Below, one piece after another: positions 2,594-43,036 of a stretch of DNA of 56,080 nt (positions are counted from its first letter, which is position 1; each line of letters starts with the position of its first letter). The position numbers and the translations under genes were made by a program. The notes under the pieces are model-generated. The model saw nothing but the letters and a program-made list of their open reading frames with translations, was not told where the DNA came from and searched no databases. The stretch comes from Candidatus Sulfotelmatobacter kueseliae (GTDB lineage: Bacteria; Acidobacteriota; Terriglobia; Terriglobales; Acidobacteriaceae). The DNA lies in the NCBI GenBank assembly GCA_900290255.1, contig OMOD01000127.1, positions 1 through 56,080 on the forward strand. The letters run 5' to 3'.

Positions 2594-3469
2594 ATGGTGA
2601 CGAGTTCCAAGGGTTCTATCCGGCTGCTGGCCACGGATATCGACGGCACGCTGCTCAATCCTCAATTTCAGATTTCCGAAGGCGACCTGGCGGCGCTGCG
2701 GCAGGCGCACGCGGCGGGCATCGAAATCGTGTTGGTGACTGGGCGGCGGCATACGTTTGCCTTGCCCATCGCGAAGCAGTTAGGGTTTGATTTGTGGCTG
2801 ATCAGTTCGAATGGCGCGGTGACGCGGTCGCTGGCGAGCGAGACGTTTCATCGCGACCTGATGCCGGCAGAAACCTGCCGGCAGCTCTGCCGGGCCATGC
2901 AAGAATTCCGCGGCAACACGGTTCTGACTTTTGATAGCGAATCGAAGGGAGCCATCGTACTGGAGCGGCTGGATGAGATCGGGCCGAGCATCCGGCGCTG
3001 GGTGGAGAAGAACATGGAGTTCATCGAGTTCGTGGTGCCGATCGAAAAGGCGGTGGTGCGCGATCCGGTGCAAACCATGTTCTGTGGAACGATGGCGCGG
3101 ATGAATGAGGCGCTGCGGGCGCTCGATGCGGCAGGAATGGATGGCAAGATCACGGTCCTACGGACGGAGTATCCGGCGCGGGATTTGTCCATGGTTGATG
3201 TGCTCAATGCCGGCTGCTCGAAGGGACATGCGCTGGAGCGATGGGCGGCGCACCGCGGCTACCAGCGCGATGAGGTCATGGCCATCGGTGACAATCACAA
3301 TGACGTGGAGATGCTTGAGTTTGCCGGGCACCCGGTTATCATGGGGAATGCCTGCGAGGAGTTGCGCGGGCGCGGCTGGAGGGTGACCCGCGGCAACGAT
3401 GATTGTGGGGTCGCGGCAGCGGTGGAGGAGATCGTCAGTGGCCAGTGGCCAGTGGTCAGTGGTCAGTGA
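2594..3469 (+). CDS. HAD-superfamily Cof-type phosphatase
   Basis: A 291-residue cytosolic phosphatase of the Cof subfamily. Motif I is LLATDIDGTLL (nucleophile Asp15, acid/base Asp17 from the ATG at 2594). A cap domain occupies the middle, and motif III/IV is present near the C-terminus (KGHALERW, then AIGDNHNDVEMLEFAG). I chose ATG 2594 because family members begin a few residues before motif I; an upstream in-frame ATG at 2543 would add 17 atypical residues. Substrates of this family are usually sugar phosphates or flavin-type phosphates and cannot be assigned from sequence. The last eleven codons and the stop lie in a tandem heptamer repeat (3436-3469), so the native C-terminus has been replaced or extended by repeat sequence. 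Confidence 0.88.
   Translation: MVTSSKGSIRLLATDIDGTLLNPQFQISEGDLAALRQAHAAGIEIVLVTGRRHTFALPIAKQLGFDLWLISSNGAVTRSLASETFHRDLMPAETCRQLCRAMQEFRGNTVLTFDSESKGAIVLERLDEIGPSIRRWVEKNMEFIEFVVPIEKAVVRDPVQTMFCGTMARMNEALRALDAAGMDGKITVLRTEYPARDLSMVDVLNAGCSKGHALERWAAHRGYQRDEVMAIGDNHNDVEMLEFAGHPVIMGNACEELRGRGWRVTRGNDDCGVAAAVEEIVSGQWPVVSGQ
3436..3469 (+). repeat. Tandem CAGTGGY heptamers at the end of the HAD gene
   Basis: Four full 7-bp units (CAGTGGC, CAGTGGC, CAGTGGT, CAGTGGT) and a partial fifth unit, CAGTGA. The partial unit contains the TGA stop of the HAD gene, so the array is translated. The same unit family recurs at 14810, 27302, 29441, 29611, 31329 and 31419. Confidence 0.9.
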
Positions 3470-3481
3470 ACGGGCGGGCGA

Positions 3482-4306
3482 ATGCGACGGTTTTGGTCAT
3501 TTCGGCTGAGGGGTGCAGCAATCGCGATCATCGCGGTGGCGGTGCTTCCCTGCTTTGCCGCAGAAGTTGCGGTGCTTAGAAACGGGTTCTCGATCCGCTA
3601 TGAACGGCGGGAAGTGGTAGGCGATGTCACACGGCTCTATGTCAACGCCGACGGATCGAGTTATGTGGACGTGCCCACGGCGGAGATTGAGCACTTCGAA
3701 GCGGCGCCGGAGTTGCCAGCACCTTCTTTCCTGGGAACGGCGAACGATGGGCGATCCGAGAGACCTGGGTTTCCCGGGCGACCGAACACCGACCTGGGTG
3801 AAGTCGTGAACGAGGCCAGCGGGCGCTACCGGCTGGATCCGGACCTGGTGAACAGCGTCATCAAGGCGGAGAGCGGATTCAATGTGCGGGCGGTGTCGCC
3901 GAAGGGCGCGCAGGGATTGATGCAGCTGATGCCGGGAACCGCCTCGCAGCTGGGCGTGCCCAATGTATTCGATCCGCGGGCCAACGTCGAGGGTGGGACG
4001 AAATACCTGCGGGAATTGCTGGAGCGCTACAACTTTGACCTGGTGAAGGCGCTGGCCGCTTACAATGCCGGGCCGCAGCGGGTGGAGCAGTTTGGCGGCG
4101 TGCCTCCGTATTACGAGACGCGGGCGTATGTGGCGCGTGTGGTAAGAGATTTCAATAAAAAGAAAGTGGCGCAGAAGGCCGGGTCGGCGACAGGGCAGAA
4201 AACGGCTCCCGCCAAAGCGACCAGTGCGCAGGGCGCCGCAAGCAAGGGCCACAATTCCGGATCTGTGAATCAGAACAAGGCCAGCGCCGGGCAGGCGAGC
4301 GAGTAG
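3482..4306 (+). CDS. Lytic transglycosylase (SLT domain)
   Basis: A 274-residue exported murein hydrolase. Residues 1-27 are a signal peptide ending in CFAAE. The SLT domain occupies about residues 107-225: catalytic glutamate in VIKAESGFN (Glu130), then GAQGLMQLMPGTA and AYNAGPQRV, all hallmark motifs of the Slt70/MltC-type goose-lysozyme fold. Such enzymes cleave the MurNAc-GlcNAc bond with formation of 1,6-anhydroMurNAc in the periplasm. A short SH3-like segment (AVLRNGFSIRYERREVVGD) precedes it, and the C-terminal 50 residues are a Lys/Ala/Thr/Ser-rich disordered tail. The gene starts 12 bases after the HAD gene and ends before a pair of GC-rich hairpin repeats. Confidence 0.92.
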   Translation: MRRFWSFRLRGAAIAIIAVAVLPCFAAEVAVLRNGFSIRYERREVVGDVTRLYVNADGSSYVDVPTAEIEHFEAAPELPAPSFLGTANDGRSERPGFPGRPNTDLGEVVNEASGRYRLDPDLVNSVIKAESGFNVRAVSPKGAQGLMQLMPGTASQLGVPNVFDPRANVEGGTKYLRELLERYNFDLVKALAAYNAGPQRVEQFGGVPPYYETRAYVARVVRDFNKKKVAQKAGSATGQKTAPAKATSAQGAASKGHNSGSVNQNKASAGQASE

Positions 4307-4320
4307 GGCGAAACCAAAGG

Positions 4321-4398
4321 CCGCGGGCAAGAGTGCCCGCGCCACACAACCGAGAAACAAGGAAAGATCAGAGCGCGGGTGAGCGCGCCCGCGCCACA
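4321..4398. repeat. Two copies of a GC-rich hairpin repeat ending CGCGCCACA
   Basis: Copy 1 (4321-4346) and copy 2 (4373-4398) each have a GCGGG arm, a short loop, a CCCGC arm and then GCCACA. They lie between the lytic transglycosylase and the flippase-like gene and could fold as hairpins in RNA. They resemble dispersed intergenic repeats rather than a terminator, because no U-tract follows. Confidence 0.6.
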
Positions 4399-4489
4399 GG
4401 TTTGACCCGGTGCGCGAGGTCATTTACCTTGGGAACTGCCGTTTCCCACTTCGCGTTGCAAGGGCCGCGGCGCGGAGATACTCTCCCCC

Positions 4490-5569
4490 ATGGATCGAAA
4501 GCGCATTCTGGCCAGCGTGGTGGTGTTCCTCATCCTGGCGGTTCTGGTTTATCTGCAATACCGGCACTGGCGGACGTTTGACTGGCCAACTTTCTGGAGC
4601 CAAACCCACCGTATCAACAAGTTTCGCGTTTTGTACGCAGTCGCTCTGATCTATTTCGCATACGTTCTCCGGGCGGTACGGTGGAAGATTTTCCTGAGGC
4701 CGGTAAAACCGACAGTGAAAGCGGCCGAACTGCTCTCGCCCACGCTGATCGGATTCACCGGGATAGCTTTGCTGGGGCGTGCGGGAGAGTTCATTCGCCC
4801 GTATTTGATCGCGCGCCGGACAGATCTTCCCTTCTCCTCGCAACTGGCAGTTTGGGCGGTGGAGCGAATTTTTGACATCGGCGCCTTCGCTTTTCTCATC
4901 GTGCTGGCAATTTTTCTGCCGAGCGCGCTGCCTTCGATTCCGCACCCGGAATATTACACGCGCTTTCGTGAAGCGGGATTCCTTCTGATTGCGTTGGTGT
5001 TAGCGACCACAGCGGCAGCAGTGGTAATCGGTCGCAAGGGTGAGGCGGCAGCGCGATGGGTAGAGCAACGGTTCGCGCACGTGCCGTCGAAAGTCGGGGC
5101 GAGCTTTGGGCACAAGCTGGGGCAAAAAGTGCGGGAATTCGGCATCGGGCTGAACACGATTCATGGACCATGGTCGCTGCTTTGGCTGACGCTGGTTTCG
5201 GTGGGCATGTGGTACGTGATTGCGCTGGCGTACAAAGCGGTGACGCATTCTTATGGAGCGGATGCTTTAGAGATTCCAGTTTCACAGTTGCTGATTCTGA
5301 TGGGATCGAGCATGGTGGGATCGATGCTGCAGCTCCCGGCCGTGGGCGGCGGATCACAGATGGCGACCATTGCGACGCTGTCGAGCGTGTTTGATGTGCC
5401 CCCGGAGATGGCGGCCAGTTGCGGGATCCTGCTATGGCTGGTAACGTTTGCGGCGGTCGTTCCGGTCGGATTACTGCTGTCGCATCACGAGAGATTATCG
5501 CTAAGGAAGTTGTCGGTGGAGAGCCATCACGCGGAAGAAACGGAGATGGGAAACCCGCCGGCGAGCTGA
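4490..5569 (+). CDS. Flippase-like / lysylphosphatidylglycerol synthase transmembrane-region protein
   Basis: A 359-residue integral membrane protein with about seven or eight hydrophobic segments. It has the family features of the UPF0104/LPG-synthase TM region: RAVRWKIFLRP after the second helix, the FTGIALLGRAGEFIRPYLI segment, and AVERIFDIGAF. A late glycine-rich motif reads LQLPAVGGGSQMA. Proteins of this type move or modify lipid-linked molecules at the inner membrane (MprF flippase half, dolichol-P-mannose-associated proteins). There is no soluble aminoacyl-transferase domain, so it would be a transporter-type member. The ATG at 4490 is the first plausible start. It is monocistronic in appearance. 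Confidence 0.8.
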   Translation: MDRKRILASVVVFLILAVLVYLQYRHWRTFDWPTFWSQTHRINKFRVLYAVALIYFAYVLRAVRWKIFLRPVKPTVKAAELLSPTLIGFTGIALLGRAGEFIRPYLIARRTDLPFSSQLAVWAVERIFDIGAFAFLIVLAIFLPSALPSIPHPEYYTRFREAGFLLIALVLATTAAAVVIGRKGEAAARWVEQRFAHVPSKVGASFGHKLGQKVREFGIGLNTIHGPWSLLWLTLVSVGMWYVIALAYKAVTHSYGADALEIPVSQLLILMGSSMVGSMLQLPAVGGGSQMATIATLSSVFDVPPEMAASCGILLWLVTFAAVVPVGLLLSHHERLSLRKLSVESHHAEETEMGNPPAS

Positions 5570-5687
5570 GGCTCGGCTTTCCCGGACTCATCGTGCCCCG
5601 TGCGGCTTGTCCGGGTTCCCTCGACTTCGCTCGGGACAGGCTCCGACCCGGACCCACACCAGCACCTGCACCCGCACTTCGCCGCCG

Positions 5688-6833
5688 CTACTCCGTGACC
5701 ACCGACTTCACCAGGTTCCGGGGATGGTCTACGTCATATCCCTTCTTTGTGGCAACGTGGTAGGCGAAGAGCTGCAGAGGAATCACTTCCACCACGGGCA
5801 GCAGCAATTCGGGAGCAGCGGGCACGTAGAAAACATGGGCCGCGATGTTGGCGACTTCGGTGTCGCCCTCGGTCGCTACAGCCACCAGTGATCCGCGGCG
5901 GGATTTCACTTCCTTCATAACCTCGAGGGTTCGCCGATAGCGCAAGACGGAATCGGGATCGCTGTGGTCGCAGGTGGCGAGCACGACCACGGGCAAAGTC
6001 TCATCCACCAGGGCATTGGGACCGTGCTTGAGCTCGCCCGCGGGATACCCTTCCGCGTGGGCGTAGGAAATTTCCTTCAACTTGAGCGCGCCCTCGCGGG
6101 CAATGGCGTAGTGCACGCCGCGCCCAAGATAGAGGAACTTTTCCGCCTTGAAGTGGACGGCTCCGAACTCCTCGGCGAGATCGTCCCATGAGCGCAGGTT
6201 CTGCTCGATGGCCTGCGGAAGGCGCTCGAGGCGCTCCAGGTACACGCGGGTGACTTCCGAAGTCATGCGTCCGCGCTTGCGGGCCAGAAACAGTGCCATC
6301 AGATGGAGGATGGTCAGCTGCGCGGTGAAACTCTTGGTGGCGGGAATGGCCAACTCGGGGCCAGCTCCTGAGATCAGGGCAGCGGAAGCCTCGCGCACAA
6401 TCGTGGTCCGATCCACGTTGGAGACGGCGATGGTCTGCACCCCGCGCCGGGAAGCCTCGCGTTGTGCCGCGATCGTGTCCGCAGTTTCTCCCGACTGGGT
6501 AATCACCATCACGATGGGAGCAGTGGCGGCATGAGTCGAGCGATAGCAGTATTCGCTGGCGTATTCGACGTCAACCGGTATACCGGAGAGATCCTCGATC
6601 ATGATTTCGCCGGCGAGGCCTGCGTGACGGCTCGATCCGCTGGCGGCGATGATGAGCTTCCCGAAGGTCAGCAGCGAAGTTTCAATGGCATGTAACTCGC
6701 CGGGAAAAATCATATCGTCTTTGACGTGCTTGGCGACCGTCTTGGCGATGGACGCGGGCTGCTCGTAGATCTCCCGCCGCATGATGTGGGAATGCTGGCT
6801 GGTACCGTTTTTCTTCGGTTTGATCGGAGTCAT
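5688..6833 (-). CDS. GlmS-like isomerase (two SIS domains) without the glutaminase domain
   Basis: A 381-residue protein that matches the C-terminal isomerase half of glucosamine-6-phosphate synthase. It starts just before the conserved HIMRREIYEQP segment. SIS1 holds ASGSSRHAGLAGEIMIED and TQSGETADTIAA (sugar-phosphate binding). SIS2 holds GRGVHYAIAREGALKLKEIS and the EGYPAGELKHGP motif, and the protein ends PRNLVKSVVTE like GlmS. The N-terminal class II amidotransferase domain with its catalytic Cys1 is absent, and no such domain is encoded nearby. It could use free ammonia, act as a hexosamine deaminase/isomerase, or be a regulatory paralogue. It is separated from the downstream MFS gene on the same strand by a heptamer inverted-repeat pair. 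Confidence 0.87.
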   Translation of the reverse strand: MTPIKPKKNGTSQHSHIMRREIYEQPASIAKTVAKHVKDDMIFPGELHAIETSLLTFGKLIIAASGSSRHAGLAGEIMIEDLSGIPVDVEYASEYCYRSTHAATAPIVMVITQSGETADTIAAQREASRRGVQTIAVSNVDRTTIVREASAALISGAGPELAIPATKSFTAQLTILHLMALFLARKRGRMTSEVTRVYLERLERLPQAIEQNLRSWDDLAEEFGAVHFKAEKFLYLGRGVHYAIAREGALKLKEISYAHAEGYPAGELKHGPNALVDETLPVVVLATCDHSDPDSVLRYRRTLEVMKEVKSRRGSLVAVATEGDTEVANIAAHVFYVPAAPELLLPVVEVIPLQLFAYHVATKKGYDVDHPRNLVKSVVTE

Positions 6834-40082: not shown

Positions 40083-40149
40083 TCCCACAGGGGTAATTAT
40101 CCCTTGACAGTAGGTACGGATTTTGCTACCGTCAGGGTAGGTAAGTCAG

Positions 40150-40434
40150 ATGCCAGAAGATAAATCAAACTGTCCAGTACCTTCTGGGAAACCGGACTTG
40201 CAGACTTCTCTGGCGGAGGCATGGGAACAAATCCACGTTCTATTAGAGAAAGTAGACGAGCTTGATCTGCAACAGACAGCGACCCTAATTGCTCTCGCAA
40301 AGACTGCTCCCAGTTTTGCGCTTGAGTACGAGCGCGCCTACAAAGCCATTGCAGGGCACGAAAAAAACAGTGAAAACGAATTACCTCCCAACGTTCGGGA
40401 GCTATTTCACCGGCTACGTAATCGTCTGACATAG
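40150..40434 (+). CDS. Passenger gene 1: small helical protein of unknown function
   Basis: A 94-residue soluble protein (MPEDKSNCPVPSGKPDLQTS, then AEAWEQIHVLLEKVDELDLQ). It is mostly helical with many charges, has no catalytic motif and is not recognised. It starts 34 bases inside the left inverted repeat. A TTGACA in that repeat (40104-40109), 17 bases before TACCGT, could be its promoter. The stop is 9 bases before the transposase start, so the two genes are probably co-transcribed. It might be a regulator of transposition or part of a passenger module. Confidence 0.6.
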   Translation: MPEDKSNCPVPSGKPDLQTSLAEAWEQIHVLLEKVDELDLQQTATLIALAKTAPSFALEYERAYKAIAGHEKNSENELPPNVRELFHRLRNRLT

Positions 40435-40443
40435 GTGACCTCC

Positions 40444-41406
40444 ATGGCTCACAACAACCGCAAGCCGAACATGCTGCCGTACACATTGAAAGACTTCCAG
40501 CGACAGTTCCCGGATGATGCAACCTGCCTTGAATGGCTTCGCAACTATCTGTACCCGACAGAAGGAATCTACTGCGAGACCTGCGAAGCGACGACCAAGC
40601 ATCACCGCATCAAGAGCCGTCCGTCCTACTCTTGCGATCATTGCGGCCATCACGTTCACCCGACCGCTGGCACGATCTTCCATAAGTCGCCCACTCCGCT
40701 CACGACTTGGTTCTATGCGATCTACCTGATGGCGCAGACGAGGTGCGGTATCAGCGCGAAGCAGATTCAGCGGGAAACGGGAGTGACGTACAAAACTGCG
40801 TGGAGAATGTTCAGGCAGATTCGCTCGATGCTTGACGACGAGAAAATGCCTCCGCTCGGCGGCGGACGCAAGCGGCCCGTCGAAATGGATGAGATGTACT
40901 ACGGCGGAGTCCGCAAAGGCCAGGGCGGGCGACCGATGGCCGGCGACATGGGAAAGAAAGTCACCGTCATCGGCATGGTTAAGCGCAAAGGAAGTGTCCG
41001 CGCAGTCGTCGCGCAGGACGTTCAAGGTTCCACAATGCTCGGCTTGGTCAAAGAACATGTCCTGCCCAAGAGCACCGTGTTTACCGACGAGTTCAAGGGT
41101 TACAACTCTCTGGATCGGCACCTGAACCAATATGATCATCGCCGCATCAATCACAGCGAGAAGGTGTACGTCGTGGGCGATGTGCATACGAACACCATTG
41201 ACGGATTCTGGGCGTTGGTCAAAACCGGCATTCGCGGCGTCTACCATCAGGTTGGCCGTCACTATCTGCAAACCTACCTGAACGAGTACAGCTTCCGCTA
41301 TAATCGCCGCTTCGACAGGGCGCCTATGTTCCACAGTTTCCTGCATCAGATCGAGAAGCGGGATGCGGTTGTGCGGCAAATCCCGGTTGAGGTTGAACCG
41401 TTCTGA
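40444..41406 (+). CDS. IS1595-family transposase (ISXO2-like)
   Basis: A 320-residue DDE-type transposase from ATG 40444 (AGGTGA six bases upstream). The N-terminal zinc ribbon has paired cysteines (YCETCEATTKHH, then YSCDHCGHHVHPTAG). A helix-turn-helix region follows (CGISAKQIQRETGVTYKTAW), then the catalytic core: VEMDEMYYGG (first Asp), TVFTDEFKGYNSL (second Asp) and the TNTIDGFWALVKTGIRGVYH region, which holds the N/E position of this family, and a C-terminal YLNEYSFRYNRR motif. All match the ISXO2-like DDE family of IS1595. No frameshift is visible, so it is likely active. Confidence 0.95.
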   Translation: MAHNNRKPNMLPYTLKDFQRQFPDDATCLEWLRNYLYPTEGIYCETCEATTKHHRIKSRPSYSCDHCGHHVHPTAGTIFHKSPTPLTTWFYAIYLMAQTRCGISAKQIQRETGVTYKTAWRMFRQIRSMLDDEKMPPLGGGRKRPVEMDEMYYGGVRKGQGGRPMAGDMGKKVTVIGMVKRKGSVRAVVAQDVQGSTMLGLVKEHVLPKSTVFTDEFKGYNSLDRHLNQYDHRRINHSEKVYVVGDVHTNTIDGFWALVKTGIRGVYHQVGRHYLQTYLNEYSFRYNRRFDRAPMFHSFLHQIEKRDAVVRQIPVEVEPF

Positions 41407-41437
41407 CTCAGCGTCGGGAAACGAACGCGAACGCGCT

Positions 41438-41887
41438 ATGCACGCAATACATCAGCAGTTCTTTCTGAAATGCGAGTGCGGTCATGCCATTCCTCTGCCT
41501 CATCCCACCCTCGAAGAAATGCCTGGAGATGAGACGCAGCGAGATAGGGCCGCTCGGACAGCAGTGTTTGCATGTACCGACTGCGGGCTTGTGTCCGCTT
41601 ACACCTCACTAAATGTCCACGAGACGTTTCTTCCCACACCGGACCCACATCTGGCAGGGAGGCTGACTCTTGGCTACATAGAGCCCGAGTGTGAAGGAAA
41701 GCACTGCGAAGCTCCCAGACGGATATATATGCTCGGGAGCGGGCCGGAAACAATCGGAGTGCTGCCGATGCGAAAAACGCTGAGAGGCTGGCGAGTTTCG
41801 CCGTCAGCGAAGTGCGAGGCGGGACACACGCTCGCGCTTCGCAGCGCGATGTATCGCTGGTTCGAGTCGGACGATTTTCCATTGTGA
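41438..41887 (+). CDS. Passenger gene 2: cysteine-rich protein of unknown function
   Basis: A 149-residue soluble protein starting MHAIHQQFFLKCECGHAIPL. It has CxC (Cys12/14) and CxxC (Cys46/49, FACTDCGLVS) pairs that form a probable zinc ribbon, then ECEGKHCEAPRRIY and a CEAGHTLAL motif near the C-terminus. No family is recognised. It lies 31 bases after the transposase on the same strand and converges on the protease gene with 6 bases between stops. It probably moves with the element as cargo. Confidence 0.65.
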   Translation: MHAIHQQFFLKCECGHAIPLPHPTLEEMPGDETQRDRAARTAVFACTDCGLVSAYTSLNVHETFLPTPDPHLAGRLTLGYIEPECEGKHCEAPRRIYMLGSGPETIGVLPMRKTLRGWRVSPSAKCEAGHTLALRSAMYRWFESDDFPL

Positions 41888-41893
41888 TGAGGT

Positions 41894-42913
41894 TTATTTT
41901 GGTTGGATTTTGCGACTGACCTTCTTTAGCGTAGTCTCGAAGTCAACTTTTGTGAAAGGCTTTTTCGGCGAAGCCGCATCTGCCGCGGGAAGGTTGGAAT
42001 CTCGGGTCTTTTCGTCCATCTCTTTACGCATCTGAACTAACTCCGGATGATGCAACGTTTCGAGAATCTTTTTTGCTGGAATGACAATTGCCACTCCCAT
42101 GTTAACAGCTTCCTCTTGCTCTGCCTTCTTGAACTTCATCGGCAAATCCCAATGGCCGTGCATTAATCCAAGAAGTTGAATGCGAGAGCCTGTTCCTGCG
42201 AGTTGTACCTCCTCGCCCTCTGCGGTTCTTCCCGGCATGTAGACGGTGTTGCGGACGAACACTGGAGAGCCACTTAGACCACCGATGGACCTACCTTCAA
42301 CTAAATATCCTTCAGCTTCGCCGAATCCTTTCAAGGGAATCCGCTGATGTGGCATCATCGCAAGATTACCGATTCTTACGATGGGCTCAAATCGTGAAGT
42401 TCCAAAAAACCGCGTGAATAATCCAACTGTGAAAATCTCGTCGCCTAGACCGACACCATATTGCATGAGGCTACTATCACTCGCAAATATCGTAGATGGG
42501 ATGCTCTCAACGTCATACTCATCGGCCATTCCAGGAGCAAAATAAGTGACTGCCACGTCAACGGAATCGCTCTCGGTCGGGTGATACCACCATCGCGCAT
42601 CACCGCTCTTAAGCATCAGCTTTGTCCCGTCTTTGGCGTTCATCCCTATGACGAATGGACCGGGATCAATAAGCTCAGCCACATGCTTAGCGGTGACTAG
42701 GTGAGCATAGCCGCCGCTCGGATCGGCTTCGGATTGGAGCGATACCACGAAAACAGTTCCAAGGTAATCCGACTTCGGCTGATCATGCGAGATAAAGCCG
42801 ACGCATTTTAAGACCTGATGCGGAATTCGCATGTTGATGTCTTTCGGCGGGCAGAGGTAGCGCGTATCCAGCCCAAATAAGCGGCGATCTACACATCCCG
42901 CCTTGAACGACAC
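41894..42913 (-). CDS. Passenger gene 3: trypsin-like serine protease, no signal peptide
   Basis: A 339-residue protein with a chymotrypsin/trypsin-fold catalytic triad: His77 in HLVTAKHVAELI, Asp119 in ESDSVDVAVTYF, Ser214 in GGLSGSPVFVR. There is no signal peptide, membrane helix or PDZ domain, so it acts in the cytosol. The C-terminal 60 residues are charged and Lys-rich (KKPFTKVDFETTLKKVSRKI). A GTG start at 42913 lies right beside the right inverted repeat; ATG 42832 (MRIPHQVLKCVGFISHDQPK) is an alternative. It is convergent with passenger gene 2. Cytosolic trypsin-like proteases occur in bacterial defence and stress modules; no such role is shown here. Confidence 0.8.
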   Translation of the reverse strand: MSFKAGCVDRRLFGLDTRYLCPPKDINMRIPHQVLKCVGFISHDQPKSDYLGTVFVVSLQSEADPSGGYAHLVTAKHVAELIDPGPFVIGMNAKDGTKLMLKSGDARWWYHPTESDSVDVAVTYFAPGMADEYDVESIPSTIFASDSSLMQYGVGLGDEIFTVGLFTRFFGTSRFEPIVRIGNLAMMPHQRIPLKGFGEAEGYLVEGRSIGGLSGSPVFVRNTVYMPGRTAEGEEVQLAGTGSRIQLLGLMHGHWDLPMKFKKAEQEEAVNMGVAIVIPAKKILETLHHPELVQMRKEMDEKTRDSNLPAADAASPKKPFTKVDFETTLKKVSRKIQPK

Positions 42914-43036
42914 CTTATTCTATACCTACTGTCAAGGGATAATTACCTCCCACAGGGGATGAAGCCTGTAAGGGCGTTGAGAATCAGCGCGTTGCGAGGA
43001 ACTTCACCATTTCTGGTTCAGCTAGAACCGGTCCGA

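What the first reader, a model, noticed from the sequence alone, without database searches (positions are those of the whole stretch)
40092..42947. Recent IS1595-like transposon carrying three passenger genes
25-bp perfect inverted ends, a 9-bp target duplication, an intact ISXO2-type transposase and lower GC than the surroundings. It carries a small helical protein, a cysteine-rich protein and a serine protease. All internal genes are intact, so the element is likely active, and cargo of this composition is not one I recognise.
Basis: partly seen in the sequence, partly recalled or inferred. Interest (0 to 1): 0.7.

Follow-up and report, generated by a model that had tools for sequence, protein, structure and literature searches.

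The report
Transposon with swappable, tail-tagged protease cargo
A small bacterial jumping gene carries a protease gene that seems to be exchanged between relatives of this transposon, while a short end-tag on the protease stays much the same and also turns up on unrelated cargo proteins of sister elements.

Summary
In detail: window 40092-42947 is a complete IS1595-family transposon with perfect 25-bp ends, a 9-bp target duplication and an open transposase frame. The site lacks it in 10 of 11 same-genus loci examined.

The cargo is not a random trio. Among 42 paired-end relatives, 17 carry a homologue of the protease: all 16 rows of the window's transposase clade and one outlier. The 94-aa and Cys-rich genes recur together in one other element. 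Clade transposases average 69% identity and proteases 36%, with uncorrelated distances (Mantel r 0.07), so the protease appears to be exchanged.

New: all 16 clade proteases end in a conserved tail (FTKxDFExALKKASRK), found on 0 of 24 solitary homologues. A similar motif ends a P63C protein and a DNA methylase, or stands as a small ORF facing the transposase: 39 of 42 elements, four by eye. Nine of 28 other IS1595 loci have a different-looking small ORF at the same place.

The protease resembles phage-defence candidate PDC-S45. Functions of protease and tail are inferred. New variant of a known kind (tIS1595).

The parts
40083..40091 (.). left copy of 9-bp target duplication TCCCACAGG
40092..40116 (+). 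left inverted repeat, 25 bp, perfect
40104..40109 (+). TTGACA inside the inverted repeat, -35-like element facing the transposase gene
   Evidence: at least 5 of 6 bases TTGACA on the transposase side in 40 of 40 elements (partly built into the search patterns), 24 of 40 on the cargo side; a -10-like hexamer at 16-18 bp in 26 of 40 (shuffled mean 6.9) and 12 of 40 (shuffled mean 4.8); in the window only 3 of 6 bases on either side
40132..40143 (+). internal direct copy of the inner repeat motif (TCAGGGTAGGTA against TGACAGTAGGTA, 3 mismatches)
   Evidence: with up to 3 mismatches on the transposase side in 15 of 17 protease elements, on the cargo side in 0 of 17; 0.63 expected by shuffling
40150..40434 (+). 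94-aa protein, probably helical (by eye); homologue in one other element
40444..41406 (+). IS1595/ISXO2-type transposase with zinc ribbon and DDE domain
41438..41887 (+). Cys-rich (zinc-ribbon-like) protein, about 149 aa (frame open from 41363)
41894..42913 (-). chymotrypsin/HtrA-fold serine protease, PDC-S45-like, no strongly hydrophobic N-terminus
42272..42274 (-). Ser214 codon of the presumed triad (His77 at 42683-42685, Asp119 at 42557-42559)
41909..41956 (-). conserved C-terminal tail FTKVDFETTLKKVSRK (residues 320-335)
42923..42947 (-). right inverted repeat, 25 bp, perfect
42948..42956 (.). right copy of target duplication TCCCACAGG

Best explanation
This is an IS1595-family transposon of the 'insertion sequence with passenger genes' (tIS) type. 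Shown: its ends, transposase and target duplication; an insertion missing from close relatives; a serine-protease gene in every sampled member of its transposase clade; protease versions unlinked to the transposase lineage; and a conserved C-terminal tail on the protease that resembles the end of other cargo proteins, or a small separate ORF opposite the transposase 3' end, in sister elements. Inferred: the transposase is transcribed from a promoter whose -35 box lies in the inverted repeat; the cargo is exchanged by recombination between elements; the protease works in the cytoplasm as a host-benefit, perhaps anti-phage, effector; the tail descends from a small protein of IS1595 elements that meets a shared partner, most likely the transposase, and became fused to the cargo in this clade.
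For: Anatomy. PHP-gene/PG-gene/HtrA order without a transposase in 10 of 11 same-genus loci. 16 of 16 rows of the clade carry the protease; 2 label changes against 12.4 in shuffles. Mantel r 0.074, 3132 of 9999 permutations as high; nearest transposase and nearest protease differ in 16 of 16 rows. PDC-S45 is the best PADLOC hit in 13 of 13 element-borne proteases scanned, of 17. Tail more alike than body in 119 of 120 protease pairs; on 5 of 5 complete element-borne proteases against 0 of 24 solitary. Two regexes hit 24 and 19 of 2250 stop-ended segments inside 42 elements (5 of the 24 look like chance) against 5 and 0 of 5559 outside. Same-side test with a wider regex and long reach: 36 of 41 elements against 2 of 28 other IS1595 loci.
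Against: No experiment. PDC-S45 is only a candidate family, and the ordinary HtrA next to the element hits another defence-labelled protease model at 58.3 bits (PDC-S45 19.4), so PADLOC hits of proteases are weak evidence for defence. No nuclease was recognised in the element. The tail motif is short, was found after the fact and partly by eye; a profile of protease tails did not recover the stand-alone tails beyond L054 at E 0.26, so kinship of fused and separate tails is unproven. L067 has transposase and cargo but no tail. Small ORFs in the same place at other IS1595 transposases show that a small protein there is not a mark of these ends alone. The fall in DNA identity at the transposase stop is sharp in three of six chosen pairs, weak or absent in the rest.
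Confidence: 0.5

Rival explanations
1. The protease and its tail serve transposition itself: the tail binds the transposase and the protease processes or removes the transposase or a host factor to control jumping.
For: Constant pairing of protease and transposase clade; tail on element-borne but not on solitary proteases; stand-alone tail ORFs face the transposase, the core abutting its stop codon in 6 of 11 inspected.
Against: Protease versions are unlinked to transposase versions, unlike an adapted enzyme-substrate pair; sister elements have methylases, DUF3800, P63C or NYN proteins instead.
Confidence: 0.2
2. The cargo is ordinary hitch-hiking without common function, and the tail is a fossil left because cargo genes captured the stop codon of a small ancestral ORF.
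For: Cargo is diverse; in L153 the protease and a tail-like frame are separate (by eye), as expected before a fusion.
Against: In the clade the tail is kept at about 64% identity against 37% for the body, after a linker of 26%, also where other genes separate it from the transposase, as in the window.
Confidence: 0.2
3. The tail motif is a by-product of conserved DNA at the transposase 3' end read on the other strand.
For: In 11 of 11 stand-alone cases inspected the ORF overlaps the transposase 3' end, by 41 nt in 4, and in 5 of 11 the core itself lies inside or over it.
Against: In the window and several relatives the tail lies hundreds of bases from the transposase, and L057 has it about 1 kb away. 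The frame has pN/pS 0.34-0.68 in 8 pairs, lowest or tied among the three forward frames; but the pairs are 29 codons, six of them come from four elements with the core inside the transposase, and there a reverse frame is as low or lower in some.
Confidence: 0.07

Closest known systems
IS1595 family insertion sequences and the tIS type with passenger genes (MTnSag1/tISSag10, tISCpe8)
   Same: DDE_Tnp_IS1595 transposase, 25-bp inverted repeats, 8-bp duplications, passenger genes (passages of PMC5704250, and PMC8101967)
   Different: Protease instead of the lincomycin resistance named for tISCpe8 in a reference title; the protease is shared by a whole transposase clade and exchanged; a conserved cargo tail. 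ISfinder and Siguier et al. 2009 were not available, so the subgroup is not assigned and passengers of this kind may be listed there.
PADLOC candidate PDC-S45
   Same: Sequence match (window E 5.2e-15, L030 1.2e-19), trypsin-like protease
   Different: A candidate only. The one paper found that names it reports it in a Sinorhizobium prophage (PMC12429752, two passages seen); the passages do not mention a transposon.
Nuclease-protease pairs of Hachiman, AVAST and Lamassu (PMC12799240; abstract, opening and passages seen)
   Same: Trypsin-like protease in immunity gene sets; weak LmuA matches for several cargo proteases
   Different: No nuclease recognised and no fusion to a defence enzyme in this element; protease and partner gene trees are similar there, protease and transposase distances are unlinked here.

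Membership tests
IS1595 family | DDE_Tnp_IS1595 catalytic domain | tested here: met
   PF12762 E 8.6e-35, 120.4 bits (cut-off 27); NF033547 195.7 bits (cut-off 75)
IS1595 family | N-terminal zinc-finger domain | tested here: met
   PF12760 E 1.9e-5, 25.0 bits, just under the curated cut-off of 25.4
IS1595 family | terminal inverted repeats (GG start is stated in the passages for Merlin, its eukaryotic kin) | tested here: met
   GGTAATTATCCC..., 25/25; passage
IS1595 family | 8-bp target duplication as a rule | tested here: met
   28 of 37 paired elements have 8 bp, the window and 2 others 9, 6 none found; Merlin has 8 or 9
IS1595 family | intact catalytic residues | tested here: inconclusive
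   Asp149 in 37 of 37 and Asp215 in 36 of 36 aligned letters; position 253 is Asp in the window and one other row, Glu in 34 of 36; that this is the third catalytic residue is my reading
PDC-S45 (PADLOC candidate defence protein) | significant profile match over most of the model | tested here: met
   window residues 28-254 match model 11-237 of 293, E 5.2e-15; HtrA control 19.4 bits for this model but 58.3 bits for RT-Protease_XI
PDC-S45 (PADLOC candidate defence protein) | protects against phage | not testable with these tools
   needs plaque assays
Chymotrypsin-fold (S1) serine protease | fold and His-Asp-Ser triad | tested here: met
   Foldseek 5hma (MamO protease domain) E 4.8e-8, then Deg8, V8, Deg5, DegP; triad residues invariant in 16 of 16 and 20 of 20
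Lamassu/AVAST/Hachiman nuclease-protease module | nuclease gene next to a protease fused to a defence enzyme | tested here: not met
   the protease is free-standing and no nuclease family matched the element's proteins

The most novel reading that the evidence does not exclude
IS1595 transposons have an overlooked second core part: a small basic protein encoded opposite the transposase 3' end. In the group with GGTAATTATCCC ends, seen in records named for several bacterial phyla and in phage contigs, it has become a portable tail, separate or grafted onto exchangeable cargo (protease, DNA methylase, P63C protein), which couples changeable defence-type cargo to the transposon machinery and makes these elements plug-in carriers of immune effectors.
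Probability: 0.3. Interest if true: 0.8.

Novelty: new variant of a known kind. Interest (0 to 1): 0.6.

Why it matters
Small transposons are usually seen as a transposase plus chance passengers. Here one clade keeps a cargo slot: the protease there is unlinked to the transposase lineage while a short tail stays fixed and recurs, as a motif, on unrelated cargo. If the tail docks cargo to the transposase or a shared host partner, it gives a simple handle on how minimal transposons keep, express and trade useful genes, possibly phage-defence genes, and an anchor motif for finding more such cargo.

Tried and rejected
Rejected: that the three genes travel as a fixed set. One other element (L073+L024, G010) has all three, plus one gene more; class and relatives searches gave G010 and otherwise weak matches for the Cys-rich protein only (G048 E 6.7e-9; four more at E 4e-5 to 5.5e-4).

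Rejected: that the protease goes with one end type only. L153, with TCACGTA-type ends, carries a distant one.

A wider regex hit 2 of 28, a relaxed one 4 of 28 near the transposase stop (26 and 29 of 41 elements; with a longer reach 36 and 38 of 41 against 2 and 6 of 28). Looking at the 28 showed small basic ORFs facing the transposase; a pattern set on them is in 9 of 39 near segments and 13 of 1145 others, 9 of 28 loci. Pfam has no match for eight such proteins. Whether they are kin of the tail is open. I lowered the best explanation from 0.55 to 0.5 for this and for the HtrA control.

Regexes were set after looking at the elements. By-eye reading was done on elements and two unpaired loci, not blind. 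One search repeated the test on six further fetches (6 of 6), of which L207, L208 and L209 were new; L206 is the L028 contig and L210, L211 repeat L170, L184.

Led nowhere: protease in phage records (no match) and plasmid records (2 weak matches); Pfam, NCBIfam and PHROGs for stand-alone tails. Paper searches on IS1595 cargo and small proteins listed nothing that I recognised as describing such a tail.
Full report
What is there. Window 40092-42947 (2856 bp) is bounded by perfect 25-bp inverted repeats and by the direct repeat TCCCACAGG at 40083-40091 and 42948-42956. Between them lie a 94-aa ORF (+), an IS1595/ISXO2-type transposase (+; PF12762 E 8.6e-35, NCBIfam IS1595 E 8.6e-58), a Cys-rich ORF (+) and a 339-aa ORF (-) facing the transposase. 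GC is 0.530 against 0.605 for the rest of the window; no outside window of equal size is below 0.578 (n = 239). With up to 3 mismatches the own assembly holds this pair of ends and one lone end on contig C63.

Recent insertion. The genes left and right (a PHP-type gene, a peptidoglycan-type gene and HtrA; names are mine from the frames) are neighbours without a transposase in 10 of 11 same-genus loci examined; in the eleventh (L133) the left gene was not found. One search matched 41 of 45 genomes, the own one included; only these 11 were read. The sites are too diverged for a base-exact empty site.

Relatives. One scan of genome contigs gave 71 stretches. After joining blocks, 37 paired elements were kept, the window included (rule: repeat of 8 or more, or ends alike at 20 or more of 25). 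Record titles name Acidobacteriota, Chloroflexi, Omnitrophota, Planctomycetes, Gammaproteobacteria, Saccharibacteria and Spirochaetia, among others; they are metagenome bins, so labels may err.

Cargo. A homologue of the protease is in 17 of the 42: 14 of the first 37 plus L149, L156 and L153. The tree holds 37 transposases (left out of the 42: L048, L071, L074, L152, L157); 16 protease rows make one whole set (support 84/84, not high) and L153 sits elsewhere. Five unpaired loci also have the protease (L022, L031, L042, L085, L091). The 94-aa and Cys-rich genes recur in L073+L024 (G010). Other cargo includes N6-methylases (L074, L055), P63C (L048), DUF3800 (L059, L152), Clp-protease-like (L025, L156), proteasome-like (L057), NYN (L054) and DUF5343/PDC-M34A (L067); several others scanned had no Pfam match. 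Cargo frames were chosen by length and some may be wrong.

The protease. The model (pLDDT 82.8) matches chymotrypsin/HtrA folds (best MamO protease domain, E 4.8e-8). The triad residues are invariant in 20 of 20, and the N-terminus is not strongly hydrophobic. PDC-S45 is the best PADLOC hit in 13 of 13 element-borne proteases scanned (of 17; 26.8-68.3 bits) and in 2 of 2 solitary ones; several hit LmuA weakly. As control, the HtrA beside the element hits PDC-S45 at 19.4 bits but another defence-labelled model, RT-Protease_XI, at 58.3 bits: a PADLOC match of a protease says little about defence by itself.

Exchange. Over 16 elements the transposases average 69% identity and the proteases 36%. 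Distances are not correlated (Mantel r 0.074; 3132 of 9999 permutations as high), and nearest transposase and nearest protease differ in 16 of 16 rows: L043/L052 have 91% and 41%, L021/L040 84% and 27%, L073/L149 66% and 56%. Of six chosen pairs, DNA identity drops sharply at the transposase stop in L043/L052 (68-88% to 25-44%), L021/L040 and L021/L029; in window/L050, L073/L030 and L040/L030 the change is smaller, gradual or blurred by extra genes. Among the 20 aligned, the window protease is closest (57%) to a solitary gene (L134); unpaired-element proteases reach 50% (L022, L091). Faster divergence alone does not explain closer proteases with more distant transposases; recombination does (inference).

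The tail. All 16 clade proteases end in [FLP]T..[DEQ]F...L...[ST]. It is more alike than the body in 119 of 120 pairs (64% against 37%), after a linker of 26%, and ranks 11 of 323 windows, the top ones at the serine. It is on 5 of 5 complete element-borne proteases of the class survey (33 of 399 genomes) and on 0 of 24 others, some of them fragments such as L110; one element-borne case (L115) is cut by a contig end; 4 of 34 matches gave no locus. 'Solitary' means no pair of ends and no transposase within about 1.5 kb; of 15 read more widely, one (L136) has a distant IS1595 transposase about 2 kb off. A like motif ends the P63C protein of L048, beyond residue 300 where its PHROG match stops, and the methylase of L074. 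In other elements it is a small ORF facing the transposase. Regex counts: 24 and 19 of 2250 segments inside, 5 and 0 of 5559 outside; 5 of the 24 look like chance, one of the five outside is a real-looking copy beside L079. Adding the window and L040 (missed by the regexes, seen) and four read by eye (L056, L075, L087, L153), 39 of 42 have it; L067, L071 (no transposase) and L076 (short, no cargo) do not. Of 19 unpaired loci with some transposase frame, 7 have it by regex (L003, L022, L031, L042, L051, L088, L091) and 2 by eye (L061, L064); in the other ten the transposase frame is cut or broken in eight, but L150 and L154 have a long transposase frame and no hit. Three new fetches (L207-L209) have it, 3 of 3.

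Control loci. Of 30 PF12762 loci, 2 have these ends and both have the tail; 28 have other ends (L191 has one stray near-match) and 0 had the first motif. With wider regexes 2 to 6 of 28 hit, against 26 to 38 of 41 elements, by setting. Nine of the 28 have a small basic ORF at the same place with another motif (F..[LMVI]..[LIVM][FLMA].[VIA][PSA]; 9 of 39 near segments, 13 of 1145 others; pattern set after looking). So a small protein facing the transposase may be wider in IS1595, the tail being one form. This is a lead, not shown.

Promoter-like parts. TTGACA (5 of 6 or better) is on the transposase side in 40 of 40 elements and on the cargo side in 24; it is partly built into the search. A -10-like hexamer follows in 26 of 40 (shuffled mean 6.9) and 12 of 40 (4.8); the window has only 3 of 6 bases. 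A copy of TGACAGTAGGTA (up to 3 mismatches) follows in 15 of 17 protease elements on the transposase side, 0 of 17 on the other, perhaps an operator or a second transposase site (inference).

How it most likely works. Shown: a cargo-bearing IS1595 element whose protease is unlinked to its transposase and tail-tagged. Inferred: cytoplasmic protease as host-benefit, perhaps anti-phage, effector (about 0.4, lowered for the HtrA control), and a tail that meets a partner common to these elements, the transposase being the first guess (about 0.3). Known kin: tIS elements such as MTnSag1 and tISCpe8 (passages of PMC5704250). The kind is known; for the protease clade, its exchange and the cargo tail I saw no account in the listings of the searches named.

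Noticed in passing
L079 element 3377-5743 and L083 element 1106-2945: Both elements sit at the same locus in a Bryobacteraceae and a Bryobacterales genome (flanks alike on both sides) but have different cargo and different 9-bp duplications, and L079 has an extra tail-ORF copy just outside its left end. Same-site replacement is unexplained.
   Followed up: partly
L189, L192, L173, L191, L185, L183, L182, L195, L198: Other IS1595 transposases of the class have small basic ORFs of about 45-65 aa facing their 3' end, with a recurrent F...L..LF.VP/VSHEE motif and no Pfam match for those scanned.
   Followed up: partly
L025 left flank and L053 left flank: Two related elements with different cargo are inserted at the same short sequence (TGGTATTCTGAACTTA) in otherwise unlike flanks: possible target preference.
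   Followed up: no
L149 372-2557; L152 2199-4104; L153 5761-7693: Complete elements lie in IMG/VR viral contigs, so phages may carry them.
   Followed up: partly
L071 4888-5883: A 996-bp element with ends and an 8-bp duplication but no transposase, only a 285-aa ORF: a non-autonomous cargo carrier.
   Followed up: no
L074 405-5233: The transposase is interrupted by a 372-aa ORF that looks like an IS110-type transposase (label recalled); methylase cargo ends with the tail motif.
   Followed up: no
window 40444-41406: The window transposase has Asp253 and Ala257 where 34 of 36 and 35 of 36 aligned rows have Glu and Ser; this may weaken the copy.
   Followed up: partly
L134 5992-6873: A solitary protease without tail, 57% identical to the window protease, no transposase within about 6 kb and no ends within about 1.5 kb: possible source or leftover of cargo.
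   Followed up: partly
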